Assembly (NCBI RefSeq): GCF_023100945.1
Contig: NZ_CP064689.1
Location: 5,190,001 to 5,254,000, forward strand
DNA length: 64,000 nt
Source of the DNA: Bradyrhizobium sp. 200
GTDB taxonomy: Bacteria; Pseudomonadota; Alphaproteobacteria; Rhizobiales; Xanthobacteraceae
Direction of reading: 5' to 3'
Part shown: positions 22,983 through 39,362 of the stretch, piece by piece
How positions within the stretch are numbered: position 1 is the stretch's first letter
Layout of the letters: each line of letters begins with the position of its first letter
Made by a program: the position numbers and the translations under genes
The notes under the pieces: generated by a model
Databases searched by the model: none
What the model was told of the DNA's origin: nothing
What the model saw: only the letters and a program-made list of their open reading frames with translations

Positions 22983-22999
22983 ATGGACAGGAGAGCAAC

Positions 23000-24757: not shown

Positions 24758-25393
24758 CTAGGTCTTTTCCCGGCGGTTCGCCGTGGCAGGCTTGGCGGCC
24801 GCACCGGGCGCAAACCCATGCAGGAACAATTCGACCGCCATATCGGCGAATTCCTGCGGACCGATCCCGCCCTCGGGATCGTACCAGGTGTAGGTGTAGT
24901 TGATGATGCCGAACAGGATCATCGTGTAGATCTTCTTGGTACGCCTGATGATCCGCCCCTCGGCATCGAGCCTGACGAGAAGATCGGTGACGATGTCGAC
25001 AAGCTGACGCTCGAGATTCTTGATGGTCTGCTGCTCGTCCTCGTTCAGAAACGACAGGTCGTGAATCAGCACGCGTTGCTCATGCGGCGACTTGGCGTTG
25101 ACCTCCACGATCGTACGAATGACATTCTGGAACTGCGTCAGCGTCGGGCCGCCCGCCGCGATAGCGGCCTCGACGCGCTCGATCATCTCCCGAATATGGG
25201 CATCCAGGATCGCAAACAGGATCGCTTCCTTGGAGTCGAAATAATGATAGAGCGCGCCGCGCGACAGCTTGCAGGCATCGGCAAGGTCGGCGATCGAGGC
25301 GCGCATGTAACCTTGAGACGAAAACAACCGCGCGGCATTGGTCAGTATGCCGAGATGGATGCCGTCGTAATTCTCAGAGCGTGTTCGCGCCAT
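24758..25393 (-). CDS. TetR/AcrR-family regulator (PaaR-like type)
   Basis: 211 residues. HTH at GILTNAARLFSSQGYMRASIADLADACKLSRGALYHYFDSKEAILFAIL; the N-terminus MARTRSENYDG and the long ligand domain resemble TetR regulators of phenylacetate and acyl-CoA catabolism. It is divergent from the FAD oxidoreductase/LIV operon; a 26-bp element between them (25547-25572) recurs in front of the Rieske operon at 39159. It is the likely repressor of both units, with an acyl- or aryl-CoA as a plausible inducer (inference). Confidence 0.9.
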   Translation of the reverse strand: MARTRSENYDGIHLGILTNAARLFSSQGYMRASIADLADACKLSRGALYHYFDSKEAILFAILDAHIREMIERVEAAIAAGGPTLTQFQNVIRTIVEVNAKSPHEQRVLIHDLSFLNEDEQQTIKNLERQLVDIVTDLLVRLDAEGRIIRRTKKIYTMILFGIINYTYTWYDPEGGIGPQEFADMAVELFLHGFAPGAAAKPATANRREKT

Positions 25394-25546
25394 CAGATGT
25401 TGCCCACTTCAATTCAGCTTTAGCTCGTATTCCCAAGGACATGCTTAGCTGATTCAGCCGCCTGTTTTCAGGTATCGACGCTGCGCCCCGCCGCCGGTCT
25501 GGCCCGGACCTGCGGCCGATCGACCATATCGTCCTTATCGCAAAAA

Positions 25547-25580
25547 ATTATTTGAACGGCCAGTCGGATTATAATATACA
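25547..25580 (+). promoter_or_regulatory. Promoter with TetR-type operator, copy T1
   Basis: An imperfect dyad centred on TTGAACGGCCAGTCGGATT (25552-25570) matches, in the same orientation to the downstream gene, the element at 39220-39245: 24 of 26 positions are identical. TTGAAC (25552-25557) and TATACA (25575-25580), 17 bases apart, make a sigma70-like promoter for the operon starting at 25641, with the dyad covering -35 and spacer. That layout suits repression. Confidence 0.65.
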
Positions 25581-25640
25581 GATTGGAATTGCTGGAGATA
25601 CCAGCCGGGTCAACCGCGCGGCATGCTTTGGGAGGTCGAA

Positions 25641-26954
25641 TTGACGGTCGTTCGTGCGGATGCTGTCGTGATCGGGGCCGGCGCGGGCGGACTTTGCGCC
25701 GCCGCGCGCCTTTCTCATGCCGGGCTTCATACCCTCGTCGTCGATGACAAGGAGCGGATCGGCGGGCGGGCCTCGGCCGAACAGATTGACGGCTTTACCG
25801 TCAATATCGGCGCGATCGCGATCGAACTGGGCGGGGTATTCGAGGAGACCTTCAATACCGTCGGTGCGCCGCTCGATATCCGCACGCCGGAGCCCGCCAG
25901 TTCCTTCTTTATCGACGGCAAGCTGATCGACGTCGGCCGCGGCGGCTGGTCGCTGCTGCTCGGGCAACTGACCAAACAGGCCTCGCGTATCCTGGAGAAA
26001 TTCGCCGACGCCCGCTCCGGCAACCTTCCCGACGGGCGGCAATCGACCGAGGACTGGCTCAAGACCTACACCAGCAACGCCTCGGTGCACGCCATCTTCC
26101 GCAACCTTTGCGCCGCGATCTTCGCCTGCAACGCCGCCGAACTGCCAGCGCGGGCTTTCCTGACCTATTTTACGAGCAAAGGCGCCTTCAAGCGCTTTGG
26201 CTTTTGCCCGCAAGGCACGATCGGCGTCTGGAATGCGCTCGGAACCGCGATCAAGCGTAATGGCGATATCTGGCTGTCGACCCCGGCTGTACAGATCCAC
26301 TCGACCGGCGGCCGTGTCGACGGCGTGACCGTCCTGCGCGATGGTCAAAGGGTACGGATCGAAACCGATCTCGTCATCAGCAATGCCGGCCCGAAGGCCA
26401 CCGTTGAACTCGGTGGTGAAGCCGCCTTCCCGCCCGCCTATGTAGAGCAGGTGCGCAACGGACTACGCCCCACCGCCAACATCGTCGTCAACATCGCAAG
26501 CCGCGAGCCGCTGATCTCCCATCCCGGCATTGTGACCTTCGGCAAGACGCGTCGGCTGTGCAACATGGCAAACCTAACGGCCACCTGCCCCGAACTCGCG
26601 CCACCTGGTTGGCATCTCTATGTCGCTTATGCGGTGCCGATCCCGGCGCTCGGCGATTTCGATTCCGACGCTGAGGTCGAACTCGCGCTGATGGATTTGC
26701 GCGAGCAGTTCCCGAACTTTGCCCAGGCTAAAATCCTGTCGATCCGCGTCATGCGCGACGACTGGCCGGCGCAACGTAGCTGCGCCGGATACGACCTGCC
26801 GCGCGAGACCGGCATCGACGGCCTGTGGTGCGTTGGTGACGCTGTGAAGCAATACGGCAATGGCGGTACGCAGGCCTGCGCCGAAACCGCGAAAATCGTC
26901 ACCGATGCGATCCTCGCGCAGCGGCCGCGCGTACCCCAGGCCGGTCGGGTGTGA
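25641..26954 (+). CDS. FAD-dependent oxidoreductase, phytoene-desaturase/amine-oxidase-like
   Basis: 437 residues. N-terminal Rossmann motif AVVIGAGAGGLCAAARLSHAG followed by VVDDKERIGGRAS, then C-terminal IDGLWCVGDAVKQYGNGGTQACAETAKIV, the second FAD motif of the phytoene desaturase/amine oxidase group. No transmembrane segment is evident. The TTG at 25641 is chosen because GGGAGG lies at 25630-25635; an ATG at 25623 precedes that site. First gene of an operon with livFG, acyl-CoA synthetase, livHM and a binding protein; a redox step on an imported acid is likely but the substrate is unknown. Confidence 0.8.
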   Translation: MTVVRADAVVIGAGAGGLCAAARLSHAGLHTLVVDDKERIGGRASAEQIDGFTVNIGAIAIELGGVFEETFNTVGAPLDIRTPEPASSFFIDGKLIDVGRGGWSLLLGQLTKQASRILEKFADARSGNLPDGRQSTEDWLKTYTSNASVHAIFRNLCAAIFACNAAELPARAFLTYFTSKGAFKRFGFCPQGTIGVWNALGTAIKRNGDIWLSTPAVQIHSTGGRVDGVTVLRDGQRVRIETDLVISNAGPKATVELGGEAAFPPAYVEQVRNGLRPTANIVVNIASREPLISHPGIVTFGKTRRLCNMANLTATCPELAPPGWHLYVAYAVPIPALGDFDSDAEVELALMDLREQFPNFAQAKILSIRVMRDDWPAQRSCAGYDLPRETGIDGLWCVGDAVKQYGNGGTQACAETAKIVTDAILAQRPRVPQAGRV

Positions 26955-26959
26955 GAGCG

Positions 26960-27814
26960 ATGCCAACAACGCTCCCGACAAAAGCGACATTTGAGAGCGC
27001 GCAGTCAGCACCTGACCCGTCATGCCTGCTCGAATTCCGCAACATCCGCATCGTCTATGACAACGCTATTGAGGCGATCCGCGACGTCAGCATTGCGGTT
27101 CCCGAAGGCGGCATCGTCGCTCTGCTCGGCTCCAACGGCGCCGGCAAGTCGACATTGCTGAAGGCGATGTCCGGAATTCTCTACACCGAGGAAGGTGCGA
27201 TCGAGAACGGCTCGATCCGGTTCCGAAATGAGGACGTCCACCATCTAGCGCCCGATGAGTTGGTGCGGCGCGGCATCGTGAAGGTGCCCGAAGGCCGCCG
27301 CGTATTTCCGGCGCTGACCATTGACGAAAACCTGCAGATGGGCGGCTACACCAGGACCACAGCCGAAGCGCGTGAGCGGCGCGAAAAAGTGTTCGCGCTG
27401 TTCCCGCGCCTGTTCGAACGGCGCGACCAGATCGCAGGCTACATGTCCGGCGGCGAGCAGCAGATGCTGGCGATCGGCCGCGCCCTGATGACCGATCCCG
27501 TGCTGCTGGCGCTCGATGAGCCGTCGTTGGGCCTCGCGCCGCTCATCATCGACCGGATCTATGAGGTGATCGCCAAGCTCCGTGACGAGATGAAGATGAC
27601 CGTGCTGCTGGTCGAGCAGAATGCGCAGCGAGCGCTCGATATCGCAGACTACGGGTACATCCTCGAGACCGGGCGCGTCGTTCTCGACGGCTCGGCGAAA
27701 AAGCTCGCCGCGAACGAGGACGTGCAGGAATTCTATCTCGGCGTCTCCAATTCAGGGCGCAAGAGCCTGCGCGACGTCAAGCATTACAAGCGGCGCAAGC
27801 GGTGGCTGTCGTGA
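26960..27814 (+). CDS. livF: LIV-type ABC transporter ATPase LivF
   Basis: 284 residues, ATPase of a branched-chain amino acid/carboxylate-type importer. Walker A GSNGAGKST, signature YMSGGEQQMLAIGRAL, Walker B LLALDEPSLGLAP, H-loop region VLLVEQNAQRAL. The tail after YLGVSNSG (RKSLRDVKHYKRRKRWLS) is a basic extension. ATG at 26960; a GTG at 26951 overlaps the preceding stop and is an alternative. In this setting LIV-type systems commonly import aromatic or dicarboxylic acids. Confidence 0.9.
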   Translation: MPTTLPTKATFESAQSAPDPSCLLEFRNIRIVYDNAIEAIRDVSIAVPEGGIVALLGSNGAGKSTLLKAMSGILYTEEGAIENGSIRFRNEDVHHLAPDELVRRGIVKVPEGRRVFPALTIDENLQMGGYTRTTAEARERREKVFALFPRLFERRDQIAGYMSGGEQQMLAIGRALMTDPVLLALDEPSLGLAPLIIDRIYEVIAKLRDEMKMTVLLVEQNAQRALDIADYGYILETGRVVLDGSAKKLAANEDVQEFYLGVSNSGRKSLRDVKHYKRRKRWLS

Positions 27815-28605
27815 CACCCCTGCTCAGGATAGAAAACCTCAGCAAGCGTTTTGGCGGCCTGCAGGCGGTCGCCGATGTCAGCCTTGCCGTAACATCAGGC
27901 GAAATCTGCAGCGTGATCGGTCCGAACGGCGCCGGCAAGACCACGCTGTTCAACATGATCTCCGGCGTGCTGCGGCCAAGCGGCGGCCGCATCCTGTTCG
28001 ACGGCATCGATCTTGCGGCCGTCTCGCCGTCGCGGTTCGCGGGAATCGGGATCGGGCGGACGTTTCAGAACCTCGCGCTGTTCAAACACGGCACGGTGGT
28101 CGAGAACATCCTGACCGGCCGGCACACGCATCTGCGCTCCAACGTGCTGGATGCCGTGATCTTCTTCGGCCGAACCCGGCGCGAGGAGATCGCGGCACGA
28201 CAGCGCGTCGAGCACATCGTCGAATTCCTCGAGATCGAGCATATCCGTGACGCCATCGTCGGAACGCTGTCCTACGGCCAGCAAAAGCGCGTCGAACTGG
28301 CGCGGGCACTCGCCTGCGAGCCGAAACTGCTGCTGCTCGACGAAATGGTGTCTGGCATGAATCAGGAAGAGACCGAGGACATCGCGCGCTTTGTCTTGGA
28401 CATCCGCGACGAACTCGGCATCACCGTATTGATGATCGAGCACGAGATGCGGATCGTGATGGATATCTCCGACCGCGTTCATGTCCTGAATTTCGGGCGC
28501 AAGATCGCCGAAGGCGCGCCGGCCGAAGTGCGGCGCGACCCTGCGGTGACGGAAGCCTATCTCGGCGGCCATCGCGCGGAACCCGTAGCACAGGCGGAGG
28601 CGTGA
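27802..28605 (+). CDS. livG: LIV-type ABC transporter ATPase LivG
   Basis: 267 residues. Walker A GPNGAGKTT, LFNMISGVLRPSGG, GRTFQNLALF, signature TLSYGQQKRVELARAL, Walker B LLLLDEMVSGMNQEE and LMIEHEMRIVMDISDRVHVLNFG. GTG start at 27802 overlaps livF; a GTG at 27811 would give a four-base GTGA overlap. It pairs with LivF on the cytoplasmic side of LivHM (30536, 31410). Confidence 0.9.
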   Translation: MAVVTPLLRIENLSKRFGGLQAVADVSLAVTSGEICSVIGPNGAGKTTLFNMISGVLRPSGGRILFDGIDLAAVSPSRFAGIGIGRTFQNLALFKHGTVVENILTGRHTHLRSNVLDAVIFFGRTRREEIAARQRVEHIVEFLEIEHIRDAIVGTLSYGQQKRVELARALACEPKLLLLDEMVSGMNQEETEDIARFVLDIRDELGITVLMIEHEMRIVMDISDRVHVLNFGRKIAEGAPAEVRRDPAVTEAYLGGHRAEPVAQAEA

Positions 28606-30536
28606 TGTCGGCACTCGAGAGCCTGCGCACCGAGCATCCACCGATGCAATCGAGCTCCACGCGTACGTCGTCTGCGTCCGCCGGATCGCTGCGGACCGCG
28701 CTGAAGAACGCCGCGATCACCATTCCCCAACTGCTTCGCCAGCGCGCCGCGATGCACGGCGACCAGCTCGCGCTGCGCGAAAAGGAATACGGCATCTGGA
28801 ATCCCTATTCCTGGAGTCACTATTACGAGACTTCGCGTTCCGTTGCCCTCGGCCTGCTCGCGCTCGGCCTCAAGCCGGGCGACCGCGTCGCCATCGCCGG
28901 CGAGAACACGCCGGAATGGTTTTACGCCGATCTCGGCGTCCAGATGATCGGTGCGGTCGCGGTCGGCATCTATCCGACCAATCCCTGGGTCGAGCTGCAA
29001 TACATCGTCCGTCACTCCGGCGCGCGGGTCGTCATATCAGGCGATCAGGAACAGACCGACAAGGTACTCGACGCGCTGGCCAATAATGGCGGCCTGCCGG
29101 CGCTCGAAGCCATCGTCTGCGTCGACATGAAGGGCCTCCGGCACTACCGGCAATCGGAACTGATGTCGTTCGAAGCGCTTTGCCAACGCGGCAGAGCCTA
29201 TGCACTCCAAAAACCCGATGCCAATGCGACTCTCGATCGGCTGATTTCGCAGGCGTCGCCCGACGACGTCTCCATCCTGGTCTATACGTCAGGCACGACC
29301 GGCCCACCCAAGGGCGCGATGCTGACGCACCGCAACCTGGTCTATGCCGCCTACATCTACGCCGAAGCCGTCGCGATCGCCGACAAGCCGTTCGAGGCCG
29401 TGAGCTACCTGCCGCTGTGTCACGTGGCCGAGCGCTGCTATGGCGAGGTGACGCATCTGGTGCTCGGCGGCACCGTCAGCTTTGCGGAATCGATCGACAC
29501 CGTCGCGCTCAATATCCGCGAAATCGCGCCGACGTTCTTCGTCGGTGTTCCCCGCATCTACGAAAAGCTCCAGCAGGGTTTTCTGTTCCGGCTCGGCGAA
29601 AGCGGCAGGCTGCGCCAGCGCTTCGTCAAGACCTGCTTTGCCTGGGGCCGCAAGCTGTCGGACCGTCGGCAGGCCGGGACCACGACATGGCTCGACCGCC
29701 TAAGCTATGCGCTGCTCTATGTTCTCCTGTTTCGCAACATCCAGCGTCACCTCGGCTTCGCCCGCAGCCGTCACCGCCTCTGTGCCGGGGCGTCGATCTC
29801 GCCGGAGACGCTACGTTTCTTCGACATCGTTGGCCGCCCGGTCTCGCAGGGTTATGGGCTGACCGAGAGCGGCGGGGTTGCCTTTATCCAGACCGAAAGC
29901 CATCACCGGCTCGGCGGCTGCGGCCTGCCCCTGCTCCACACCGAATGGAAGATCGACAGCGATGGCGAGATCCTGCTGCGCAATCCAGGCGTCTTCAAAG
30001 GTTATTTCCTCGACGAAAAGGCTTCGGCCGCAACGCTCGATTCCGCCGGCTGGCTGCGCACCGGCGATATCGTCGAGGTTCTGGACAATGGCGAGATCAC
30101 CGTGGTCGACCGCAAGAAGGCGATCATCATCACCGCCGGCGGCAAGAACATCGCGCCTTCAGAGATCGAGAACGCGCTGAAGGACTCTGAGTTCCTCAAG
30201 GAAGCGATCGTGGTCGGAGAGGCCAAGAAATATCTCGGCGCAATCATCCAGGTCGACTTCGACAATGTCGGGCGCTGGGCGCGCGACAAGGCCTTGCCCT
30301 ATACCAATTACAAGTCGCTATCGCAGCTCCCCGAAGTGCACGAGTTGGTCGAGCGCATCGTCAACGAGACCAACAAGCGCTTCGCCCGCGTCGAAAACAT
30401 TCGCCGTTTCGCCATCCTCGAAAAGGAGCTCGATCACGACGACGGCGAGCTGACCGCCACGCAAAAGGTGCGCCGCGCCATGATCGAGAAGAAGTTCGCG
30501 CGCGAACTCGCCATCATCTACCAGGCGGAGGGCTGA
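28605..30536 (+). CDS. Long-chain-type acyl-CoA synthetase
   Basis: 643 residues, AMP-forming synthetase of the eukaryote-like/FadD15 type. Seen: ILVYTSGTTGPPKGAMLTHRN (phosphate loop near residue 220), YLPLCHVAER, FFVGVPRIYEKL, SQGYGLTESGGVAF, GWLRTGDIVEVLDNGEI and DRKKAIIITAGGKNIAPSEIEN. It sits between livG and livH with a one-base overlap to livH, so uptake and CoA activation are produced together. ATG at 28605 overlaps the livG stop (TGATG). Substrate not predictable; aromatic or branched acids are as likely as fatty acids here. Confidence 0.88.
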   Translation: MSALESLRTEHPPMQSSSTRTSSASAGSLRTALKNAAITIPQLLRQRAAMHGDQLALREKEYGIWNPYSWSHYYETSRSVALGLLALGLKPGDRVAIAGENTPEWFYADLGVQMIGAVAVGIYPTNPWVELQYIVRHSGARVVISGDQEQTDKVLDALANNGGLPALEAIVCVDMKGLRHYRQSELMSFEALCQRGRAYALQKPDANATLDRLISQASPDDVSILVYTSGTTGPPKGAMLTHRNLVYAAYIYAEAVAIADKPFEAVSYLPLCHVAERCYGEVTHLVLGGTVSFAESIDTVALNIREIAPTFFVGVPRIYEKLQQGFLFRLGESGRLRQRFVKTCFAWGRKLSDRRQAGTTTWLDRLSYALLYVLLFRNIQRHLGFARSRHRLCAGASISPETLRFFDIVGRPVSQGYGLTESGGVAFIQTESHHRLGGCGLPLLHTEWKIDSDGEILLRNPGVFKGYFLDEKASAATLDSAGWLRTGDIVEVLDNGEITVVDRKKAIIITAGGKNIAPSEIENALKDSEFLKEAIVVGEAKKYLGAIIQVDFDNVGRWARDKALPYTNYKSLSQLPEVHELVERIVNETNKRFARVENIRRFAILEKELDHDDGELTATQKVRRAMIEKKFARELAIIYQAEG

Positions 30537-31408
30537 TGCAGTATTTCATCCAGCTCATAATATCCGGCCTTGCGATCGGCGCCATCTATGGCCTGATCGC
30601 GATGGGCTTTGCGGTGATCTACAAATCCACCGGCCTGGTCAATTTCGCGCAAGGCGAAATGACCATGATCACGGCCTATATCGCCTGGACCATTTCGACC
30701 ACGGTCAGCGGCAATGTGTTTGTCGTGGCGCTCGGCGCTATCCTCGCGGCTGTTATGCTCGGCCTCGTCATCGAGCGCGTGGTGATGCGTCCGATGCTGG
30801 GCGAACCGGTCTTTGCCATCGTCATGGTAACCATCGGCCTGGCAGTGATCCTGCGCTCGTCGATCAATTTTATCTGGGACGCCTATCCGCATGGTCTCGA
30901 CGTTGGCTTCGGCCGCACCATTGTGCGTATCGGCACAATCGGGGTGCGGACGGGGCAAATTGCGGTCATCGTCACACTTCTGGCGCTGCTCGCCGCGATC
31001 TGGGCGTTCTTTCGTTACAGCAAGATCGGCGTCGCGATGCGCGCCGTCGCCGCCGACGATCGCACCGCGCTCCTGATGGGCATCAGCGCCACCAGGGTTC
31101 ATGCCCTCGCCTGGGCAGCTTCATCCGTCATCGCCGGAATCGGCGGCGTGTTCTTTGCGCTGTCCTACGATCTCTCGCCGGCGATGTTCCAGCTCGGGCT
31201 GAAGGCGTTTCCGGCGACCATCCTGGGCGGCCTCGACGCCGTGCTCGGATCCGGCCTCGGCGGCCTCCTGATCGGCATCACCGAAAATCTCGCCGGCGGC
31301 TATGTCGGCTCCGGCATGAAGGAGGTCGCGGGCTTTGCGATGATCATCGTGGTGCTGATGATCCGCCCGTTTGGCATCTTCGGCGAACGCGATATCGAGA
31401 GGGTTTGA
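30536..31408 (+). CDS. livH: LIV-type ABC transporter permease LivH
   Basis: 290 residues, about eight hydrophobic segments. Seen: GLAIGAIYGLIAMGFAVIYKSTGLVNFAQGEM (family N-terminal block), VTIGLAVILRS, SKIGVAMRAVAADDRTALLMGI (cytoplasmic coupling loop) and KAFPATILGGLDAVLGSGLGGLLIGI. Start overlaps the synthetase stop (TGATG). Confidence 0.92.
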   Translation: MQYFIQLIISGLAIGAIYGLIAMGFAVIYKSTGLVNFAQGEMTMITAYIAWTISTTVSGNVFVVALGAILAAVMLGLVIERVVMRPMLGEPVFAIVMVTIGLAVILRSSINFIWDAYPHGLDVGFGRTIVRIGTIGVRTGQIAVIVTLLALLAAIWAFFRYSKIGVAMRAVAADDRTALLMGISATRVHALAWAASSVIAGIGGVFFALSYDLSPAMFQLGLKAFPATILGGLDAVLGSGLGGLLIGITENLAGGYVGSGMKEVAGFAMIIVVLMIRPFGIFGERDIERV

Positions 31409-31409
31409 G

Positions 31410-32456
31410 ATGCGCACCGGAGATTTCAAGCAAACCTACGGCGAACTCGTAACCCTCGTTGACTCTCCGCCGGTCTGGCTATGGTCGGCGCTGCTGGTCG
31501 CAGGCCTGATCGCAGCGCCCTTCGTGCTGAACTCCTATGCACTGTCGTTCCTGATGATCATCATGATTACGGTGGTCGGCGCGCTAGGCTTGAACATCCT
31601 GACCGGCTACACCGGCCTGATCTCGCTCGGCCATGTCGGCTTTCTCGTCACTGGCGCTTACGCCTATGCGGTGCTGGTTTCCAAATATCAGATGCATCCG
31701 CTGGTCGGCTTCCTTGGCGCGGGCGTGGTACCGGCGCTCGCCAGCCTCATCGTCGGCGCGCCGTCGCTGCGGCTGAAGGGGCTTTATCTCGCGATCACCA
31801 CGCTGGCGTTTTCCTTCATCATCAACACCGTGATCCTGGAAGCGCGGTGGCTGACCAACGGCGCCCGTGGCATTTCGGTGCAGCGGCCGGAGATTTTCGG
31901 CCTCAGCTTCGAGGGCGATGCCGCCTTCACCTATCTTTGCCTCGGCTTTGCCGTGTTCACGCTGTTTGCCACGCTCAACATCCGTCGCAGCCGCGTCGGC
32001 CGCGCCTTTGTCGCGATTCGCGATAACGACACCGCCGCCCGGGTCATGGGCATCAATCTGCACGCCTACAAGCTGTTCGCCTTCGTCACCTCCGCCTTCA
32101 TCACCGGCCTTTCGGGCGCGCTTTACGGCATCTATTTGTCCTTTGTCAGCGTCGAAGGCTTTCCGTTCCTGCTCTCTATCGAGGCGCTGGCGATCCTGAT
32201 CGTCGGCGGGCTCGGCTCAGCGCTCGGCGCCGTACTCGGCACCATCCTGATCGTGCTGCTGCCAGAAGCGACGCGGCTGGTATTCAGCCTGTTCAGCGCT
32301 CAGATGGACGCGATGTTCACGACCGGTGCGCAGGAGCTGAAGAGCATGCTCTATGGCCTCGTCATCATCATGTTCCTGCGCTTCCAGCCGCGCGGCCTGG
32401 TCGGCGCCTGGCACGACATCCGGCGAATATGGGTGAACTGGCCGCTTCGTTACTAA
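31410..32456 (+). CDS. livM: LIV-type ABC transporter permease LivM
   Basis: 348 residues, multiple membrane segments. Seen: LGLNILTGYTGLISLGHVGFLVTGAYAYAVL (family signature), GLYLAITTLAFSFIINTVI, SRVGRAFVAIRDNDTAARVMGINLHAYKLFAFVTSAFI and EALAILIVGGLGSALGAVLGT. ATG at 31410, immediately after the livH stop. Forms the channel with LivH. Confidence 0.92.
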   Translation: MRTGDFKQTYGELVTLVDSPPVWLWSALLVAGLIAAPFVLNSYALSFLMIIMITVVGALGLNILTGYTGLISLGHVGFLVTGAYAYAVLVSKYQMHPLVGFLGAGVVPALASLIVGAPSLRLKGLYLAITTLAFSFIINTVILEARWLTNGARGISVQRPEIFGLSFEGDAAFTYLCLGFAVFTLFATLNIRRSRVGRAFVAIRDNDTAARVMGINLHAYKLFAFVTSAFITGLSGALYGIYLSFVSVEGFPFLLSIEALAILIVGGLGSALGAVLGTILIVLLPEATRLVFSLFSAQMDAMFTTGAQELKSMLYGLVIIMFLRFQPRGLVGAWHDIRRIWVNWPLRY

Positions 32457-32488
32457 CCAGAAAAGAAATCAAGCAGGAGGAGGAAACA

Positions 32489-33649
32489 ATGATCAAATAT
32501 CTGGCGACCGCGTCGCTGTTACTCGCGGGCACGTATCTTTCGACCGGCCCAGCGCTGGCCGCCGACCCTGGAATCACCGACACCGAAATCGTGATCGGAG
32601 ACGTCGAGCCCCTGACCGGTCCGCCGGCACTGCTCGGCGTCGCCGCATCGATCGGCCACAAGATCGCGATTGCCGAAGCCAATGCCGCCGGTGGCATCAA
32701 CGGCCGCAAGATAAAATATGTGCTGGAAGACGACGGCTATGTCACGGCCCGCACCATCCAGGGCGTCAAGAAGGTAACCGACGTCGACAAGGCCTTCGCG
32801 TTGCTCGGCATCTCAGGCTCGGGACAGTCCATCGCCGTGATGCCGCTATTGGAAAAGGCCGGCATCCCCACCGTGATCGACGTGGCGCCGGTCAAATTCC
32901 TCTGGGAGCCGCCACGCAAGAACGTGTTCGTGGTCGGGCAATCCTATGAGGAAGGCATCATCCACCTTGTCAATTATCTCGCCGACAAGAACCCCGGCAA
33001 GAAATGGGGCCTGATCACCCAGGACGATGATTACGGCATCACCGTGCGCGACGGCTTCGATACCGTCGTCAAGGCCAAGAAGCTCAACGTGGTCTACAGC
33101 GGCAACTACAAGAAGGGCCAGCAAGATTTCTCGTCCGACATGCTGCAATTGAAGGATTCCGGCGCCGAAGTGTTTCTGGCCGGCGGCATCATCGGTGAGA
33201 ACATCGCGATGATGAAGGAGCTGGAGAAGCTCAACATCAAGCCGGTGGTCGGTATCTTCTGGCCCGGACGGGTCGAGCCGGTGCTGAAACTGATGGGACC
33301 GGCCGGCGACGGCATCTATGCGGTCGACTATGTCGAGCCGTTCGCAGGCGCCGCCGGCAAGGCCTTCCTCGAAAAGGCCAAGGGACTGCTGCCGGAAGCC
33401 GAGATGAAAGGCGTTAACCGCTATTCGATGACCGGCTATGCCGCCGCCAAGGTCTTGATCTCCGCGATCGAACGCTGCGGCAAGCAGCCGACGTGGGCCT
33501 GCACCATCACTGAACTGGAAAAGACCAAGAATGTCGAAACCGGCATCATGGCGCCGATCAGCTTCGGACCCGGGGTCCGCTTCTCGAACCAGAAACTGCA
33601 GATCATGCAGTCCGAGTTCTCGACGCTGAGCTTCAAGCCGGTGAATTGA
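32489..33649 (+). CDS. LIV-type ABC transporter substrate-binding protein
   Basis: 386 residues, periplasmic binding protein type I. Signal peptide MIKYLATASLLLAGTYLSTG with likely cleavage after PALA. Seen: PGITDTEIVIGDVEPLTGPP, AEANAAGGINGRKIKYVLEDDGY, VFVVGQSYEEG, DDDYGITVRDGFD and AEVFLAGGIIGENIAMMKEL. A strong GGAGGAGGAA site precedes the ATG. Last gene of the operon starting at 25641; ligand class probably a hydrophobic or aromatic carboxylate judging by neighbours. Confidence 0.92.
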   Translation: MIKYLATASLLLAGTYLSTGPALAADPGITDTEIVIGDVEPLTGPPALLGVAASIGHKIAIAEANAAGGINGRKIKYVLEDDGYVTARTIQGVKKVTDVDKAFALLGISGSGQSIAVMPLLEKAGIPTVIDVAPVKFLWEPPRKNVFVVGQSYEEGIIHLVNYLADKNPGKKWGLITQDDDYGITVRDGFDTVVKAKKLNVVYSGNYKKGQQDFSSDMLQLKDSGAEVFLAGGIIGENIAMMKELEKLNIKPVVGIFWPGRVEPVLKLMGPAGDGIYAVDYVEPFAGAAGKAFLEKAKGLLPEAEMKGVNRYSMTGYAAAKVLISAIERCGKQPTWACTITELEKTKNVETGIMAPISFGPGVRFSNQKLQIMQSEFSTLSFKPVN

Positions 33650-33653
33650 ACAA

Positions 33654-33668
33654 CCAGCGCGATGCTGG
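33654..33668. terminator. Possible hairpin between converging operons
   Basis: CCAGC (33654-33658) and GCTGG (33664-33668) form a 5-bp stem with a 5-base loop just after the binding-protein stop and before the converging dehydrogenase stop at 33697. No T tract follows; low confidence. Confidence 0.25.
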
Positions 33669-33696
33669 CCGGCACCCGACGCACCGGTCAGCCGCC

Positions 33697-34890
33697 TCAC
33701 ATCCGCTTGGCGACTTCCTCCAGCATCACCTCGGTGGCGCCGCCACCGATGGTCAGTACCCGCGCGTCACGCACCATCCGCTCGATTGGCGTGCCGCGCA
33801 TGAAACCGGTGCCGCCGTGCAGTTGCAGACAACCATGCACCACCTCGTGCAGCACTTCCGGCGACAGCGCCTTCACCATCGACACCTCGCGAGCAGCCGA
33901 TTGGCCGGCCTCCACCAGCTCCGCCGCATGGTAAGCGAGCGCACGGGCAGCCGCCGCCTTGGCTGCGAGTGACGCCAGCTTGAGCCGTACCGCCTGCTGG
34001 TTCCACAGCGGCCCGCCAAACGCCTGCCGGCCCTTCACATAGTTGGTGGTGAGTTCGATCGCCTTGGCCGACTCGCCGGCGCAGATGCCGCCGATGCAGA
34101 TCCGTTCATTCTCGAAGGTTTCCATGATGCCATAGAAGCCGCGGTTTTCTTCGCCGAGCAGGTTTTCGAGGGGAACGCGCACGTCCTGGAACGCGATCTC
34201 GGCCGTGTCGGAGCAGAGCCAGCCATGCTTGTCGAGCTTGGTCGCGGAGATGCCGGGCGTCCTCCGCTCGACAATGAACAGCGAAATGCCGCGGCTGCCC
34301 TTTGCCGCGGGATCGGTACGCGCTGCAACGATCAGGATGTCGCCATAGACCGCGTTGGTGATGAACATCTTTGAGCCGTTGATCACCCAGGAATCGCCGT
34401 CGCGGCGAGCGCGCGTCTTCAGTCCGGCGACGTCGGAGCCCGCATCGGGTTCAGTCACCGCGATCGAGCAGATCGTCTCGCCGCGGATGATCGCGGGTAG
34501 ATATTTCTGCTTTTGCTCCGGCGTGCCGCGCAAGGTGATGTGGACCGCCGACATGTCGGTATGCACCAGCACCGACGAGGTGAAGCCGCCGAAGGTCGAA
34601 CGTCCCAGTTCCTCAGCCCACACCATTGAGGCCAACGGTCCCATGTCGGTGCCGCCATAATCGGCCGCGTGGCGCATGCCGAGAAAGCCGAGCGCGCCCA
34701 TGCGGCGGTAGATTTCGCGCGGAATCTTGCCGTCGCGCTCCCACTGCTCGCCATGCGGCACCACTTCCTTCTCGACGAAACGGCGAACCTGCTCGCGCAG
34801 CATCCGCAACTCCTCGGAAAGCTGCGGCTGCTCCGAGAAATGGAATTCGCTGTCGGAGTGACTGCGCGGATCGGCGGGCCTGACGTTCAT
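33697..34890 (-). CDS. Acyl-CoA dehydrogenase
   Basis: 397 residues. Seen: EKEVVPHGEQWERDGKIPREIY, SIAVTEPDAGSDVAGLKTRA, INGSKMFITNAVYGDILIVAART, TFENERICIGGICAGE, RQAFGGPLWNQQAVRLKLA, QLHGGTGFMRGTPIERMVRDARVLTIGGGATEVM. A standard FAD dehydrogenase of acyl-CoA thioesters. Last gene of the six-gene operon driven from 39159; its ATG overlaps the esterase stop by four bases. A CoA-ester dehydrogenase in an operon headed by a Rieske oxygenase is unusual. Confidence 0.9.
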   Translation of the reverse strand: MNVRPADPRSHSDSEFHFSEQPQLSEELRMLREQVRRFVEKEVVPHGEQWERDGKIPREIYRRMGALGFLGMRHAADYGGTDMGPLASMVWAEELGRSTFGGFTSSVLVHTDMSAVHITLRGTPEQKQKYLPAIIRGETICSIAVTEPDAGSDVAGLKTRARRDGDSWVINGSKMFITNAVYGDILIVAARTDPAAKGSRGISLFIVERRTPGISATKLDKHGWLCSDTAEIAFQDVRVPLENLLGEENRGFYGIMETFENERICIGGICAGESAKAIELTTNYVKGRQAFGGPLWNQQAVRLKLASLAAKAAAARALAYHAAELVEAGQSAAREVSMVKALSPEVLHEVVHGCLQLHGGTGFMRGTPIERMVRDARVLTIGGGATEVMLEEVAKRM

Positions 34891-35804
34891 GATGATGCCC
34901 TCTCGGCCTTGATGTGAAGGTGCCGGTTGAGAAATTGCGCGATCGATACGATGGCCTGATGCGCCTCGGGAAGCTCCGCGCCGAACATCTGGAAGACGTG
35001 GATCATACCATCCCAGACCTCCAGGTTAACATCGATGCCGGCAGCGCGCGCTATCTCGGCAAACATGACGGAATCGTCCAGCACGGTTTCGCGGTCGCCG
35101 ACCTGGATCAATAGCGGCGGCAAGCCCCCGAGGTCGGCATACAGCGGTGATACCAGGGGATCATAGGGATCGCCCTGCCCGCCCAGATAATTCTTTGCCA
35201 GCGCCAGGATCATCGCGCGCTGATGGATCGGGTCCGCTTCGGCCCGGCTGACGTAACTCGCACCGGTCGCCACCAAATCGGTCCATGGCGACATCAGCAC
35301 GGCCGATGCGGGCAGCGGAAGCCTCCGTTCGCGCAAGGCCAGCATGGCTGCGAGCACGAGATTGCCGCCGGCAGAATCCCCGGCAAGAGCGATGTTGGCC
35401 GACTTCAGGCCGCGGTCGAGCATCCAGCGATAGGCTGCGACGGCGTTGTCCAGCGCGGCCGGAAAGCGATGTTCCGGTGCGAGGCGGTAGTTGATGGCGA
35501 GCACGCGGCAGCCGCTGGCGAGTGCGATCTGCGCAATCAGGTCGCGGTGCGAGGCCACAGAGCCGATGCGAAAGCCGCCGCCATGGAAATAAAGAATGGC
35601 CTTGTCCTCCGGTGCATCGTCCGGCGATATCCATTCGCCGTCGACACCACCGGCGGAGACGCATTCGCATGTGACCGGCGCGGTGCTGCCTCCGAAGGCC
35701 GCATCCCAATCGCTGCGCATCTGGGTTACGGAGGTTTCGCGATTCCAGCTCCGGTAGACCGCGCGTATGCGTTCGATCGCAAGATCGATCGGAGTTGCTG
35801 CCAT
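34887..35804 (-). CDS. Alpha/beta hydrolase, hormone-sensitive lipase family
   Basis: 305 residues. Oxyanion motif ILYFHGGGFRIGS, nucleophile elbow ALAGDSAGGNLVLAAML, catalytic Asp/His region near DRETVLDDSVMFAE and EVWDGMIHVFQMF. Members hydrolyse short-chain and aromatic esters or amides. Start chosen at MAATPIDLAIE (35804); an in-frame ATG at 35825, one base after the SDR stop, would add seven residues. It lies between an SDR and an acyl-CoA dehydrogenase in one operon. Confidence 0.85.
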   Translation of the reverse strand: MAATPIDLAIERIRAVYRSWNRETSVTQMRSDWDAAFGGSTAPVTCECVSAGGVDGEWISPDDAPEDKAILYFHGGGFRIGSVASHRDLIAQIALASGCRVLAINYRLAPEHRFPAALDNAVAAYRWMLDRGLKSANIALAGDSAGGNLVLAAMLALRERRLPLPASAVLMSPWTDLVATGASYVSRAEADPIHQRAMILALAKNYLGGQGDPYDPLVSPLYADLGGLPPLLIQVGDRETVLDDSVMFAEIARAAGIDVNLEVWDGMIHVFQMFGAELPEAHQAIVSIAQFLNRHLHIKAERASS

Positions 35805-35826
35805 ATTCTCGCCCGCGCGCCCCATA

Positions 35827-36585
35827 TCAGCCACCCAACCCCATGCCACCCGACACCCCAATCGTCTCGCCGGTGATATAGCCCGCCTGATCGGAGGCCA
35901 GAAACAATACGGCCGCGGCGATCTCTTCGGGTTCGCCGAGGCGCCGCAACAAGGTGGCATCGGTCATCGCGCGCAAGATCTTGTCGCCCCCCTTGGCGAC
36001 GGCGGCTTCCAGCATCGGCGTGCGGACCGGCCCAGGCGCGATTGAATTGGCGGTAATCCCGAAGCGCGCATTTTCGCGCGCAATGCTTTTGGTGAAGGCG
36101 ATTACACCTCCCTTCGCGGCCGAATAGACCGCACCGCCCTTCGAGCCCAACCGTGCCGCTTCCGAGGTGATGTTGATGATGCGCCCGAAGCCGGCCGCCT
36201 GCATCGCCGGAAGCGCGGCGTGGGTGCACGCAAAAGCCGACACCAGATTTACCGCTAGCAGCCTGGCCCAATCTTCTGCCGTCGTATCGGTGAAAAACGC
36301 ATGCTGGTCGACGCCGGCATTGTTGACAACGATATCGAACGGCCCGTGCTGCGACATGGTCGCCTGCACCATGCCGGTGTCGCCGACATCGAGGTGGACC
36401 GCCGTCGCACCAACCTGCCCGGCCAGAGCGGACGCCCCGGCGATATCGAGATCAACGATCACGATATGAGCGCCGGCATCGGCAAAGCTTCGCACGATCG
36501 CCGCACCAATGCCCTGCGCGCCGCCCGAGACGAAGGCGCGGCGGCCGTCGAGCCGTCCGAAAGCCCGAGTGCCGGGCGCCGGCAC
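35827..36585 (-). CDS. SDR dehydrogenase, BadH-like
   Basis: 252-residue classical SDR. Seen: FVSGGAQGIGAAIVRSFADAG, DIVVNNAGVDQ, IINITSEAARLGSKGGAVYSAAKGGVIAF (Ser and Tyr-x3-Lys), ITANSIAPGPVRTPMLEAA and ITGETIGVSGGMGLGG. The S-E-A-A-R-L-G and AVYSAAKGG blocks resemble BadH and the SDR at 963, suggesting oxidation of a hydroxyacyl-CoA. Three bases after the crotonase stop, in the same operon. Confidence 0.85.
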   Translation of the reverse strand: MPAPGTRAFGRLDGRRAFVSGGAQGIGAAIVRSFADAGAHIVIVDLDIAGASALAGQVGATAVHLDVGDTGMVQATMSQHGPFDIVVNNAGVDQHAFFTDTTAEDWARLLAVNLVSAFACTHAALPAMQAAGFGRIINITSEAARLGSKGGAVYSAAKGGVIAFTKSIARENARFGITANSIAPGPVRTPMLEAAVAKGGDKILRAMTDATLLRRLGEPEEIAAAVLFLASDQAGYITGETIGVSGGMGLGG

Positions 36586-36588
36586 TAG

Positions 36589-37383
36589 CTAGCGTCCCGT
36601 AAAGATGGGTTTGCGCCGTTCGATGACGGCCGCGAGCCCTTCCCGCGCGTCGGCCATCCCCGACAGCTCGGACACGGTGCGCGCTTCTTCCGAGAGGCAT
36701 TGCTCGACGCTGGTGCCGGTTCCCGCCCAGACCAGCCGCTTGGTCGCCGCCAGCGCCTTCGGCGCACCGGCCGCCAGTTCCCGTGCGAAGGCGAGCGACG
36801 CCTCGCCCAATTCGGTATCGGGAACAACTTTGGTGACGATGCCCATCTCCAGCGCCTCAGTCGCCGATATCACCGGATTTGTAAGAAGGATCGACATTGC
36901 GCGGCGCAAGCCGACCAACCGCGACAGCGTGACGGAGACACCGGCGTCAGGCGCCATGGCGACACGCGTCGCACCCGCGAGGAATTTTGCGGATTCGCCG
37001 GCGATGACGATATCGGAAGCGCAGACGAGCCCAAAGCCGCCGCCACCTGCGGCAAAGCCCTGAACGGAAGTGATGACGGGCGCCTCCAACCGCAAAAGCC
37101 CCGTCACCGCATTCTGCAGATAGGCCGTTGCCTGCCGGATGTAGTCAGGCAGCTTCTCGCCCTTCGACGCAAAGGCGCGCACGTCGCCGCCCGCGCAAAA
37201 GTTCGTCCCCTCGCCGCTCAGCAGCAGCACGCGCAGGTCCGGCTGACCGTGGCAAACCATGATGGCGTCGCACAGCGCGTTCAGGAGTTCGGCGCTCATG
37301 CCGTTGGCGGCGTCGGGGCGGTTGAGCCGCAGCCGCGCGATGCCGTCGGCGATGTCGAGCAGAACGGGTCCCTTGTCAATCAT
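36589..37383 (-). CDS. Enoyl-CoA hydratase/isomerase (crotonase family)
   Basis: 264 residues. Seen: RLRLNRPDAANGMSAELLN, GEGTNFCAGGDVRAFAS, VITSVQGFAAGGGGFGLVCASDIVIAG, GATRVAMAPDAGVSVTLSRLVG and EMGIVTKVVPDTEL, ending EGLAAVIERRKPIFTGR. The APDAGVS loop has Asp where typical hydratases place Glu. It follows the oxygenase beta subunit by 22 bases and precedes a BadH-like SDR, suggesting a hydratase-dehydrogenase pair on a CoA ester. Confidence 0.87.
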   Translation of the reverse strand: MIDKGPVLLDIADGIARLRLNRPDAANGMSAELLNALCDAIMVCHGQPDLRVLLLSGEGTNFCAGGDVRAFASKGEKLPDYIRQATAYLQNAVTGLLRLEAPVITSVQGFAAGGGGFGLVCASDIVIAGESAKFLAGATRVAMAPDAGVSVTLSRLVGLRRAMSILLTNPVISATEALEMGIVTKVVPDTELGEASLAFARELAAGAPKALAATKRLVWAGTGTSVEQCLSEEARTVSELSGMADAREGLAAVIERRKPIFTGR

Positions 37384-37405
37384 TGCAAGCTTTCTACCTT
37401 CAAGG

Positions 37406-37903
37406 CTAAATCAGGAACGAGAGCGTGAACAAGGCCTTCTCGTTGTTGACGAGCGTCACCTTCTTGTACGCCATTCGCAGCTCGCCATCGACATGGCGCA
37501 GCCGGTATTCGTTGCGGGCGGCCCAGATGGTGTCGTCGCGAAGGCTGGATTCAAACACCAGACTATTGCAGGCGACCGAGATATCGCCGCCCGGCTGCTC
37601 GTCCAGAAGCTCAATGTTGGATACCAGCCGTCGCAGCCGCGACTGCGGCGTCTGGGTGTGGCGTTTGCCGGTCAGCAATTGCTTGATGCGGAGCGAAATG
37701 CGCGAACGGTTGTCGTAAATGATCGACATTTCCTTTTCGGGATCGATATCGTCGCCGTTGGCTGGCACCCAATAGACCCCATCATCGGTCCAGAGCGCTT
37801 CCCAGGCTTCATACCGGTGCTCGTCCTGGAGCCGCGCCTCCTTGTAGATGAAGGCCGTCACGGCACTCATCAATGTAGCGCTGCTTTCGCGCGACAGCAT
37901 CAC
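37406..37903 (-). CDS. Aromatic-ring-hydroxylating dioxygenase, beta subunit
   Basis: 165 residues, NTF2-like. Seen: VTAFIYKEARLQDEHRYEAWEALWTDDGVYWVPANGDDIDPE, SIIYDNRSRISLRIKQLLTGKRHTQTPQSRLRRLVSNIEL and WAARNEYRLRHVDGELRMAYKKVTLVNNE. It overlaps the alpha-subunit stop by four bases (ATGA). No reductase or ferredoxin gene is adjacent; the nearest isolated Rieske ferredoxin is at 60592. Confidence 0.9.
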   Translation of the reverse strand: MMLSRESSATLMSAVTAFIYKEARLQDEHRYEAWEALWTDDGVYWVPANGDDIDPEKEMSIIYDNRSRISLRIKQLLTGKRHTQTPQSRLRRLVSNIELLDEQPGGDISVACNSLVFESSLRDDTIWAARNEYRLRHVDGELRMAYKKVTLVNNEKALFTLSFLI

Positions 37904-39159
37904 ACCGTCTCCATCAGGCTGCGATAATGACGCCAGATGCCGCGCGACGGAATCTCGTCAGTGACGTGACCGACCTTGAAGCCAAGATCGTCGCGGCGCT
38001 CACGCTTCTCGCCGCGGCCGAGAAAAATCCATTCGGGGTTACGCGCCAGCACGCCGCGATGGCAGCGCTCGTACATTTCCGAATCGTCGGCCAGCAACAG
38101 TCCGGCGGGGCCGACCGAGCCCATGGTCTGCTGGCGCAGACGCCGGTTCATGTCGGGCGCGCCCTTGAACTGCAATGCAGTGACATGCTGCACGCTGTCG
38201 TCGACGGCGAGCGGCTGGATCACGAACATCTGGATTTCGGCGATGAACAGGTTCGGGAAGATCATCACATGCGGCGTGCCGTCGATCATGATCTCGCGCG
38301 CCTTCTGGTCGCCATAGGCGGCCTTCATTCGCGCCGTATAATCCGGCAACCGCGCTTCCGTGGTGCCGAACCAGCTCATCGGCGCGTCGCGCTTGCGGAA
38401 CTCGGGCCGCAGGTCGATCTCGGTATGGCCGTTGCCATAGTCGCGCGTCACCGCAGTCGATGCGCCGCCATAGAGCTTGCCGATTGCGCTGTCGGCGACA
38501 CCGAAGATCGAGGAATGCACGAAGGCCGGGTGATAGCCGTCACATTCGTTTTCCAGAATGAATTTCCAGTTGGCCTTGACGCGGTGCTTGAGGAAGCCCG
38601 CTGTCACCTCGACCTCGCCTTTCGGCGAGAAGCGAACCAGGCGGTCGATGGTTTCGGCGGCACCGCCGAGATGCTCTTCCAGAGTCGGGCCCTCTGCCGC
38701 AAACGAGCCGAACACAAAACCGCGATAGGATTGCACCCGTGTCACGCGGCCGAGCGAAAGCTTTGACTTGTCCTGGCCTTCGTAGCCGTCCGGGAAGGCA
38801 TAGCCGACCAGACGGCCGTCATTGGCAAAGGTCCAGGAATGGAAAGGACACGTGAAAGAGCGTGCGTTGCCTTTATCGTAAGAGCAGACTTGGTTGCCGC
38901 GGTGCGAGCATCGGTTCAGCAGCAGATTGACCTTGCCCTGCTCGTCGCGGGTCATGATGATGGATTGCGGCCCGATCGATTTGACGACGTAATCGTTCGC
39001 TTTCGGCACCTCGCTTTCGTGCCCGACATAGACCCAGGTGCGGTACCAGATGTTCTGCAATTCCGCTTCGAAGATCGCGGGATCGCTGTAGAGCGAGCCG
39101 TGCACCCGGTCCGGCCGGATCAATTCGCCCCACCGTGACGCGCGCGGCACAACGTTCAT
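37900..39159 (-). CDS. Rieske aromatic-ring-hydroxylating dioxygenase, alpha subunit
   Basis: 419 residues. Rieske ligands CSHRG (C84, H86) and CPFHSW (C104, H107); iron site ENECDGYHPAFVH (D207, H210, H215). Start at 39159 (MNVVPRASRW) follows GGGAG by 8 bases; an ATG five codons upstream is less well placed. First gene of an operon continuing with beta subunit, crotonase, SDR, esterase and acyl-CoA dehydrogenase. The TetR-type element at 39220-39245 sits 61 bases upstream. Its substrate is unknown; neighbours suggest an aromatic acid or its CoA ester. Confidence 0.92.
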   Translation of the reverse strand: MNVVPRASRWGELIRPDRVHGSLYSDPAIFEAELQNIWYRTWVYVGHESEVPKANDYVVKSIGPQSIIMTRDEQGKVNLLLNRCSHRGNQVCSYDKGNARSFTCPFHSWTFANDGRLVGYAFPDGYEGQDKSKLSLGRVTRVQSYRGFVFGSFAAEGPTLEEHLGGAAETIDRLVRFSPKGEVEVTAGFLKHRVKANWKFILENECDGYHPAFVHSSIFGVADSAIGKLYGGASTAVTRDYGNGHTEIDLRPEFRKRDAPMSWFGTTEARLPDYTARMKAAYGDQKAREIMIDGTPHVMIFPNLFIAEIQMFVIQPLAVDDSVQHVTALQFKGAPDMNRRLRQQTMGSVGPAGLLLADDSEMYERCHRGVLARNPEWIFLGRGEKRERRDDLGFKVGHVTDEIPSRGIWRHYRSLMETV

Positions 39160-39219
39160 CGCTGCATCTCCCATGGCTGGCCCGGGCTCTCTTGCGGAAA
39201 CCTGCGGCTTGGGCTAAAA

Positions 39220-39245
39220 ATAATCCGACTGACCGTTCGAATAAT
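39220..39245 (-). promoter_or_regulatory. TetR-type operator, copy T2
   Basis: A 26-bp element with core CCGACTGACCGTTCG (39225-39239), an imperfect dyad. Read toward the Rieske operon it has the same orientation and nearly the same distance to the start (61 bases) as copy T1 has to its gene (69 bases), with only two mismatches. The TetR protein at 24758 is the expected binder. The NTF2-crotonase gene at 39363 is transcribed away from the same region. Confidence 0.65.
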
Positions 39246-39362
39246 AGCACCAGCGTTTGGCGGCTTCAAGGGGATTTTCCCGATCGACGCCGTCTCGCAT
39301 CGCAGCGGCGGCTTCGAGATGCCGGCCGTTGATAACAGCGGGTTCGAAAAAGGGAGTTTTGG

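What the first reader, a model, noticed from the sequence alone, without database searches (positions are those of the whole stretch)
25547..39245. A 26-bp element shared by two operons 13.6 kb apart
Bases 25547-25572 and 39220-39245 match at 24 of 26 positions, in the same orientation and at similar distance (69 and 61 bases) to the downstream start. One precedes an uptake and CoA-activation operon, the other a Rieske oxygenase/CoA-catabolic operon. The TetR gene at 24758 is adjacent to the first. This predicts that the two operons form one pathway: import, CoA ligation, ring oxygenation, then beta-oxidation-like steps.
Basis: partly seen in the sequence, partly recalled or inferred. Interest (0 to 1): 0.75.

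Follow-up and report, generated by a model that had tools for sequence, protein, structure and literature searches.

The report
Shared repressor switch for two operons
Two neighbouring gene sets in a Bradyrhizobium-type soil bacterium, one for taking up and activating an organic acid and one for breaking it down, carry the same short DNA switch, very probably the landing site of the repressor encoded next door; this looks like an undescribed example of a well-known kind of gene control.

Summary
Bases 25547-25572 (+) and 39220-39245 (- strand) match at 24 of 26 positions, co-oriented with the operons they precede; no other window site lies within 3 mismatches, and no third genome site comes within 1 mismatch of the degenerate forms searched. 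Each copy is an imperfect palindrome overlapping a predicted promoter. In 146 genomes of the genus (own included), element and TetR orthologue occur together in 36, each alone in 1, neither in 108. In G126, TetR lies beside the Rieske operon, the uptake operon's first gene was not found, and one element remains, between TetR and Rieske. In Chelatococcus and Rhodoblastus the two gene sets form one co-directional run, with both elements. Related sites head other pathway units in further genera carrying the TetR. Best reading: operators of the TetR at 24758-25393, repressing one regulon for uptake, CoA activation and Rieske/beta-oxidation-like breakdown of an unknown carboxylic acid. Not shown: DNA binding, inducer, substrate, reaction order. 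A known kind of system.

The parts
25547..25572 (+). Element 1: 26-bp imperfect palindrome (8 of 13 symmetric pairs), predicted TetR operator of the uptake/ligase operon
   Evidence: conserved in 30 of 30 TetR loci scanned; 23 of 26 columns at least 90% conserved in an alignment anchored on the TetR start
39220..39245 (-). Element 2: same 26-bp palindrome (8 of 13 symmetric pairs), predicted TetR operator of the Rieske operon
   Evidence: conserved upstream of the Rieske alpha orthologue in the same 30 of 30 genomes
25552..25580 (+). Predicted promoter 1: TTGAAC (-35, inside element 1), 17 bp, TATACA (-10)
   Evidence: read by eye from conserved columns; not called by the consensus scan
39241..39269 (-). 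Predicted promoter 2: TTGAAG, 17 bp, TATTAT with upstream TG; -10 overlaps the left end of element 2
   Evidence: consensus scan (1 found, 0.1 expected); strict TTGNNN-16/18-TANNNT form in 12 of 25 relatives, 2 of them at another position
24758..25393 (-). TetR-family regulator, 211 aa; predicted repressor that binds both elements
   Evidence: PF00440 and PF17932; co-occurs with the element
25641..26954 (+). FAD-dependent oxidoreductase (amine oxidase / phytoene desaturase-like), first gene of operon A
   Evidence: PF01593
26951..27814 (+). LivF-type ABC ATPase
27802..28605 (+). LivG-type ABC ATPase
28602..30536 (+). Acyl-CoA ligase (AMP-binding, long-chain/FadD11-like), 644 aa
   Evidence: PF00501, PF23562; NF038343 346 bits, below its cut-off of 950
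30536..31408 (+). LivH-type permease
31371..32456 (+). LivM-type permease
32429..33649 (+). LivK-type periplasmic binding protein, last gene of operon A
   Evidence: PF13458
33697..34890 (-). Acyl-CoA dehydrogenase, last gene of operon B
34887..35960 (-). HSL-type alpha/beta hydrolase (the 5' part of this ORF overlaps the SDR gene)
   Evidence: PF07859
35827..36585 (-). Short-chain dehydrogenase (BadH/FabG-like)
36589..37383 (-). Enoyl-CoA hydratase/isomerase family protein
   Evidence: PF00378
37406..37903 (-). Rieske oxygenase beta subunit
   Evidence: PF00866
37900..39159 (-). Rieske oxygenase alpha subunit, first gene of operon B; 2Fe-2S motif present, D/H/H iron ligands inferred from the alignment
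   Evidence: PF00355, PF00848; alignment to solved oxygenases; start supported
39363..40550 (+). SnoaL plus enoyl-CoA hydratase fusion, divergent from operon B; possible third target of element 2
   Evidence: homologue placed between ACAD and LivK in L064, L071, L077 and L087

Best explanation
The two 26-bp elements are operators of the TetR-family protein encoded at 24758-25393. The protein binds each palindrome and blocks RNA polymerase: element 1 covers the -35 and spacer of the promoter of operon A (FAD oxidoreductase, Liv-type ABC importer, acyl-CoA ligase; 25641-33649), and element 2 starts at the -10 and runs downstream in the promoter of operon B (Rieske oxygenase alpha/beta, enoyl-CoA hydratase, SDR, alpha/beta hydrolase, acyl-CoA dehydrogenase; 39159-33697). 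A pathway compound, plausibly a CoA thioester made by the ligase, releases the repressor and switches on both converging operons, which import a carboxylic acid, activate it to CoA, oxygenate it and break it down by beta-oxidation-like steps. Shown by computation: the elements, their palindromy, conservation and co-occurrence with the TetR and the operons. Predicted from sequence: the promoters and their overlap with the elements. Inferred: binding by this TetR, repression, inducer, substrate and reaction order.
For: Both elements in 30 of 30 relatives scanned (TetR homologue found in 35 of 35 genomes searched, 2 of 37 handles not held). In 146 genomes of the genus: element and TetR 36, TetR only 1 (G100: 49% identity over residues 30-206, with a stop), element only 1 (G007), neither 108; the 34 genomes with a close Rieske alpha (76% or more) are all among the 36. 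Elements stand out in variable intergenic DNA: upstream of Rieske alpha and, anchored on the TetR start, 23 of 26 element columns are at least 90% conserved against 58 of 274 others, which include the start of the FAD gene. Rearrangements: TetR and Rieske directly divergent with one element between (L096, G126) where the FAD gene was not found; element 1 kept at the FAD gene although TetR is about 7 kb away (G145); both gene sets in one run with both elements (L094, L097). Outside the training set, 22 of 22 loci with a TetR homologue have an operator-like site of 9 bits or more within 350 bp upstream of Rieske alpha, against 5 of 22 without one in the locus. Those 22 loci hold 51 sites at 13 bits or more, against 7 in reversed and 1 in shuffled sequence. 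The TetR paralogues carry a different recognition helix and their operons a different half-site.
Against: No binding, expression or metabolite data. Palindromy is moderate (8 of 13 pairs; about 1.1% of all 26-mers in the window reach this). Loci are related, so counts overstate independence, and some genomes recur under two handles between calls. The weight matrix was trained on the Bradyrhizobium-group sites and the score thresholds were set by me. 5 of 22 loci without a TetR in view still reach 9 bits (L099, L112, L119, L120, L130), which may mean a TetR outside the locus or another regulator with a similar site. Promoter 1 was not called by the automatic scan, and the strict form of promoter 2 is found in 12 of 25 relatives only. 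In L098 no second site appears at 9 bits or more. No structure of the TetR could be predicted.
Confidence: 0.83

Rival explanations
1. The elements are operators of a different regulator, such as the second TetR in the window (21418-22107) or an unlinked global regulator.
For: A second TetR lies about 2.7 kb from the first; 5 of 22 loci without the TetR in view have a site at 9 bits or more.
Against: The second TetR was not found on the far side of the TetR in any of 20 relatives' regions, 10-17 kb each (it matched 91% in L065 on the other side of the Rieske gene, and 42% in L121). Only two genome sites at 0 or 1 mismatch, so no sign of a global regulon. Co-occurrence is with the 24758 TetR.
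Confidence: 0.07
2. The two operons share a regulator but serve separate pathways with a common inducer, so the uptake/ligase operon does not feed the Rieske enzymes.
For: The Rieske core occurs with TetR but without the FAD gene in G126 and G052, and no Liv or ligase homologue was matched within the loci L101-L105 and L107 (some of these loci are short).
Against: Co-directional single run in Chelatococcus and Rhodoblastus; the genes on the far side of the TetR differ in 20 relatives while the block stays; an independent paralogous locus again joins Liv uptake, a CoA ligase and a Rieske operon under similar sites.
Confidence: 0.1
3. The similarity comes from shared promoter sequence or a dispersed repeat, not from a regulator site.
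For: Both copies overlap predicted promoters; other near-identical 26-mers exist in the window.
Against: The predicted promoter hexamers lie at different places in the two elements, so shared promoter sequence would not align them; only two genome copies; the other window pairs are coding; most intergenic columns outside the elements vary among relatives.
Confidence: 0.02

Closest known systems
TetR-family regulators of CoA-linked degradation regulons in Proteobacteria (FadP, LiuQ, PsrA as listed in PMC5343134, passages read)
   Same: TetR protein, multi-gene regulon of one degradation pathway, sites found by comparative genomics
   Different: Different pathway and lineage; FadP and LiuQ are reported there as unique to betaproteobacteria. 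No pathway in the table rows shown in the passages concerns a Rieske oxygenase. Their motifs were not compared here.
ipfABDEF ibuprofen pathway of Sphingomonas Ibu-2 (PMC6063337, passages read), represented here by plasmid pIBU218 (L174)
   Same: Rieske alpha/beta acting, as proposed by its authors, on a CoA thioester made by a dedicated ligase; alpha 42% and beta 47% identical over the aligned parts
   Different: ipf uses a sterol-carrier-protein-X thiolase and removes the acyl-CoA side chain; no thiolase was found among the genes scanned here, and the ligase here had no match of at least half its length in L174. Identification of L174 as ipf rests on gene order, plasmid name and recall, not on a stated gene name.
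iadDE indole-3-acetate dioxygenase (PMC9613470, passages read); PDB 7yls/8h2t linked to it from memory only
   Same: Alpha/beta ring-hydroxylating pair; 7yls is among the two best sequence matches in the PDB
   Different: the iad loci of that paper are MarR-regulated; here the adjacent regulator is TetR; whole gene sets were not compared
PDB 3ccy, putative TetR regulator
   Same: Best sequence match of the TetR in the PDB, 144 bits over residues 1-195
   Different: No function recorded in the listing

Membership tests
TetR family of regulators | N-terminal TetR HTH domain | tested here: met
   PF00440 58.7 bits, cut-off 24; PF17932 77.5 bits, cut-off 26.4
TetR family of regulators | Palindromic operator overlapping the target promoter | tested here: inconclusive
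   8 of 13 symmetric pairs in each copy; promoter 2 called by scan, promoter 1 by eye only; use as operator not tested
TetR family of regulators | Ligand-released DNA binding | not testable with these tools
   needs gel shift and ligand assay; structure prediction not obtained
Alpha/beta Rieske ring-hydroxylating oxygenases | Rieske domain, catalytic domain and beta subunit | tested here: met
   PF00355, PF00848, PF00866 above cut-off; C-x-H-x17-C-x2-H visible
Benzoate, anthranilate or 3-phenylpropionate dioxygenase (curated equivalogs) | Score above NCBIfam cut-off | tested here: not met
   202.7 of 780.95, 185.4 of 671.9, 190.3 of 830 bits
ipf-type ibuprofen pathway | Rieske alpha/beta of IpfAB type | tested here: inconclusive
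   42% and 47% identity to the pIBU218 pair; relatives in other contexts are closer
ipf-type ibuprofen pathway | SCP-x thiolase (ipfD) and ipfE in the cluster | tested here: not met
   no thiolase or OB-fold family among the 18 proteins between 24758 and 44845 scanned with Pfam
iad auxin degradation locus | MarR regulator | tested here: not met
   the adjacent regulator is TetR; whole iad gene set not compared
Cyclohexanecarboxylate/benzoate CoA pathway enzymes (BadH, AliB type) | Score above NCBIfam cut-off | tested here: not met
   SDR 212.1 of 431.2 for BadH; ACAD 249.2 of 575.35 for cyclohexanecarboxyl-CoA dehydrogenase

The most novel reading that the evidence does not exclude
The window holds one lineage version of a widespread, undescribed regulon, mainly of Alphaproteobacteria, in which a TetR subfamily, sensing an acyl-CoA, controls a CoA-dependent Rieske pathway: the oxygenase works on a CoA thioester rather than the free acid, and duplicated copies of the whole system in one cell are kept apart by co-evolved recognition helices (SRGAL-type against SKSRL-type) and half-sites.
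Probability: 0.35. Interest if true: 0.6.

Novelty: new member of a known kind. Interest (0 to 1): 0.42.

Why it matters
It turns a neighbourhood of generically named genes into one testable regulon with a named candidate switch, a promoter pair and a defined gene set, and does so for many species at once. The operator can be used as a reporter to find the unknown substrate by screening acids. The paralogous locus in the same genome gives a natural pair for studying how duplicated TetR systems avoid cross-talk.

Tried and rejected
Whole-genome scan for further regulon members: none beyond the two sites; hits at 2-3 mismatches are near control level. Short core pattern: not significant in the window. 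Idea that the neighbouring Rieske/extradiol cluster 17301-24681 belongs to the same pathway and supplies ferredoxin and reductase: beside the TetR in 20 relatives' regions only scattered matches of 24-36% identity were found; several of its genes lie near the TetR homologue in Rhodopseudomonas L121, so it is not excluded. Benzoate, anthranilate, phenylpropionate and cyclohexanecarboxylate assignments fail curated cut-offs. Indole-3-acetate: weak sequence link and another regulator type. First alignment of the FAD side was cut around the element itself and so favoured it; it was repeated anchored on the TetR start, with the same result. A claim that promoter 2 is generally conserved was cut back after a strict count of 12 of 25. 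Literature: searches listed no paper that I recognised as describing this regulon; absence is only for those term sets in that library.
Full report
CHECK OF THE OBSERVATION. They are inverted on the + strand and co-oriented relative to the operons. Distances of 69 and 61 bases hold for starts at 25641 (TTG) and 39159 (ATG), both backed by conserved ribosome-binding sequence. No other match lies within 3 mismatches in the window, and 0 were seen in 100 shuffles. In the whole genome (9,494,728 bases, one contig) a 23-base degenerate form has 2 perfect places, none at 1 mismatch, and a total within 3 mismatches of 234 against 184 for the reversed pattern; a 19-base form gave 13 places within 2 mismatches against 8, again 2 perfect and none at 1. 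Non-overlapping near-identical 26-mer pairs in the window fall at 4 places, and the other three are paralogous coding sequence.

ANATOMY. Each copy is an imperfect palindrome with 8 of 13 symmetric pairs, a level reached by about 1.1% of the window's 26-mers. Aligning the window and 25 chosen loci upstream of Rieske alpha, anchored on its start, shows the element as the main conserved block. A first alignment of the FAD side was cut around the element itself and was biased; repeated on 31 sequences anchored on the TetR start, 23 of 26 element columns are at least 90% conserved, against 58 of 274 others, which include the start of the FAD gene. In front of the Rieske gene the scan calls TTGAAG-17-TATTAT with a TG before the -10, the -10 overlapping the left end of the element; a strict form of it is found in 12 of 25 relatives, in 2 of them at another position. 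In front of the FAD gene, TTGAAC inside the element followed 17 bases later by TATACA was read by eye; the scan did not call it. If both are right, the same palindrome sits at two different places relative to its promoter, which fits a repressor site better than shared promoter sequence. No terminator was called between the convergent operon ends.

GENES. TetR; operon A: FAD oxidoreductase, LivF, LivG, acyl-CoA ligase, LivH, LivM, LivK; operon B: Rieske alpha and beta, enoyl-CoA hydratase, SDR, alpha/beta hydrolase, acyl-CoA dehydrogenase. The Rieske centre motif is intact; the D/H/H iron ligands are inferred from the alignment and recalled naphthalene dioxygenase residues. No ferredoxin or ferredoxin reductase family was found among the genes of operons A and B.

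CONSERVATION. 80 loci carrying a relative of Rieske alpha were fetched from the genome collection (142 found, best 80 kept). For 37 of them I asked for the TetR in the parent genome: 35 were held and 35 of 35 had a homologue at E 1e-25 or better (identity 45-92%). Thirty TetR loci were returned, and 30 of 30 have the element beside the TetR (22-26 of 26 consensus positions) and also upstream of Rieske alpha (19-26). Of the other 5, G050, G052 and G053 were seen through L094, L096 and L097, L098 (G054) shows only the site at Rieske alpha at 9 bits or more, and the TetR side of G031 was not scanned. In 146 genomes of the genus, own included, a strict pattern occurs in 37, the TetR (E at most 1e-50) in 37, and a Rieske alpha of 76% or more identity in 34 (36 matched; G080 and G187 have only the 68% paralogue). 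The overlap of pattern and TetR is 36; exceptions are G007 (pattern only) and G100 (49% match over residues 30-206 with a stop, no pattern). All 34 Rieske genomes have both TetR and pattern; 33 of 34 have at least two pattern sites, and G126, with one, had no FAD gene match. The TetR of G126 is an intact 198-residue frame; the stop counted is its end. Genomes with TetR but no Rieske hit besides G100 are G133 and G140, which are 87% and 75% complete. These genomes are related, so no p-value is claimed.

REARRANGEMENTS. In L096 and G126 the TetR lies directly divergent to Rieske alpha with a single element between, and the FAD gene was not found in either genome (Liv and ligase genes not searched there). 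In G145 the element stays at the FAD gene although the TetR is about 7 kb away. In Chelatococcus (L094) and Rhodoblastus (L097) the order is FAD, LivF, LivG, ligase, LivH, LivM, LivK, Rieske alpha, beta, hydratase, SDR in one direction, each with a site before FAD and a site before Rieske alpha (the L094 and L096 Rieske sites were part of the matrix training set, L097 was not). Of 20 regions on the far side of the TetR, none shares genes 17301-24681 as a set. The conserved block is therefore close to 24758-39174, with element 2 at its Rieske end.

WIDER FAMILY. A symmetric weight matrix from 66 sites (39 distinct) was applied to 44 loci outside the training set. All 22 with a TetR homologue in the locus have a site of 9 bits or more within 350 bp upstream of Rieske alpha; 5 of 22 without one do (at 13 bits 19 against 4, at 15 bits 15 against 2). 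The thresholds were set by me, the TetR list was entered by hand, it includes distant homologues of 31-37%, and the loci are related. Over whole loci, the 22 with TetR hold 51 sites of 13 bits or more against 7 in reversed and 1 in shuffled sequence; the other 22 hold 8 against 1 and 2. In L125 sites stand before LivF (two), between TetR and FAD, before ACAD and before Rieske alpha.

PARALOGUE. The same genome has a second system at 7.60-7.62 Mb: TetR 38%, Rieske alpha 68%, beta 58%, hydratase 60%, SDR 57%, hydrolase 45%, with a Liv-type operon and a divergent ligase whose C-terminal domain is PF14535. Sites with a different half-site, scoring 12-16 bits on this matrix, lie before Rieske alpha, before its TetR and between the Liv operon and the ligase. 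Recognition helices differ (SRGAL against SKSRL). This repeats the uptake, ligase, Rieske logic.

FUNCTION. The best-supported account is a TetR repressor with two operators controlling one catabolic regulon. Sensing of a CoA thioester and oxygenation at the CoA stage are inference; the precedent is the ipf pathway, for which its authors proposed CoA ligation before dihydroxylation (PMC6063337, passages read). The substrate is unknown; curated families for benzoate, anthranilate, phenylpropionate and cyclohexanecarboxylate enzymes are not met.

NOVELTY. TetR control of CoA-linked catabolic regulons is well known (FadP, LiuQ, PsrA in PMC5343134, passages read). This regulon was not recognised in the listings of searches. 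It is a new member of a known kind.

Noticed in passing
17301-24681: A separate, complete-looking Rieske dioxygenase system: ferredoxin reductase, alpha, beta, SDR, Rieske ferredoxin, a second TetR, two extradiol-dioxygenase-like proteins and another SDR. Not conserved as a set beside the TetR in 20 relatives' regions; several of the genes are near the TetR homologue in Rhodopseudomonas locus L121.
   Followed up: partly
L189 (own genome 7598000-7617000): Paralogous TetR/Rieske/Liv/ligase system with its own palindromic sites of a different half-site.
   Followed up: partly
39363-40550: SnoaL and enoyl-CoA hydratase fusion divergent from the Rieske operon; in L064, L071, L077 and L087 its homologue lies between ACAD and LivK instead, so it may belong to the pathway.
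   Followed up: partly
40579-45336: Peptide-type ABC transporter genes (SBP_bac_5, two ATPase genes, permease) beyond element 2; only low-identity matches in the relatives' loci.
   Followed up: no
60950-62432: A second pair of Liv-type ABC ATPase genes in the window, source of two of the near-identical 26-mer pairs.
   Followed up: no
L074, L080, L088 near position 6600: A further palindromic site of the same general type about 3.3 kb upstream of Rieske alpha; gene context not examined.
   Followed up: no
L038 (G007:C89:1-2116): Partial TetR match (60% over residues 118-207) in a genome with one stray element-like site and no TetR orthologue at E 1e-50.
   Followed up: no
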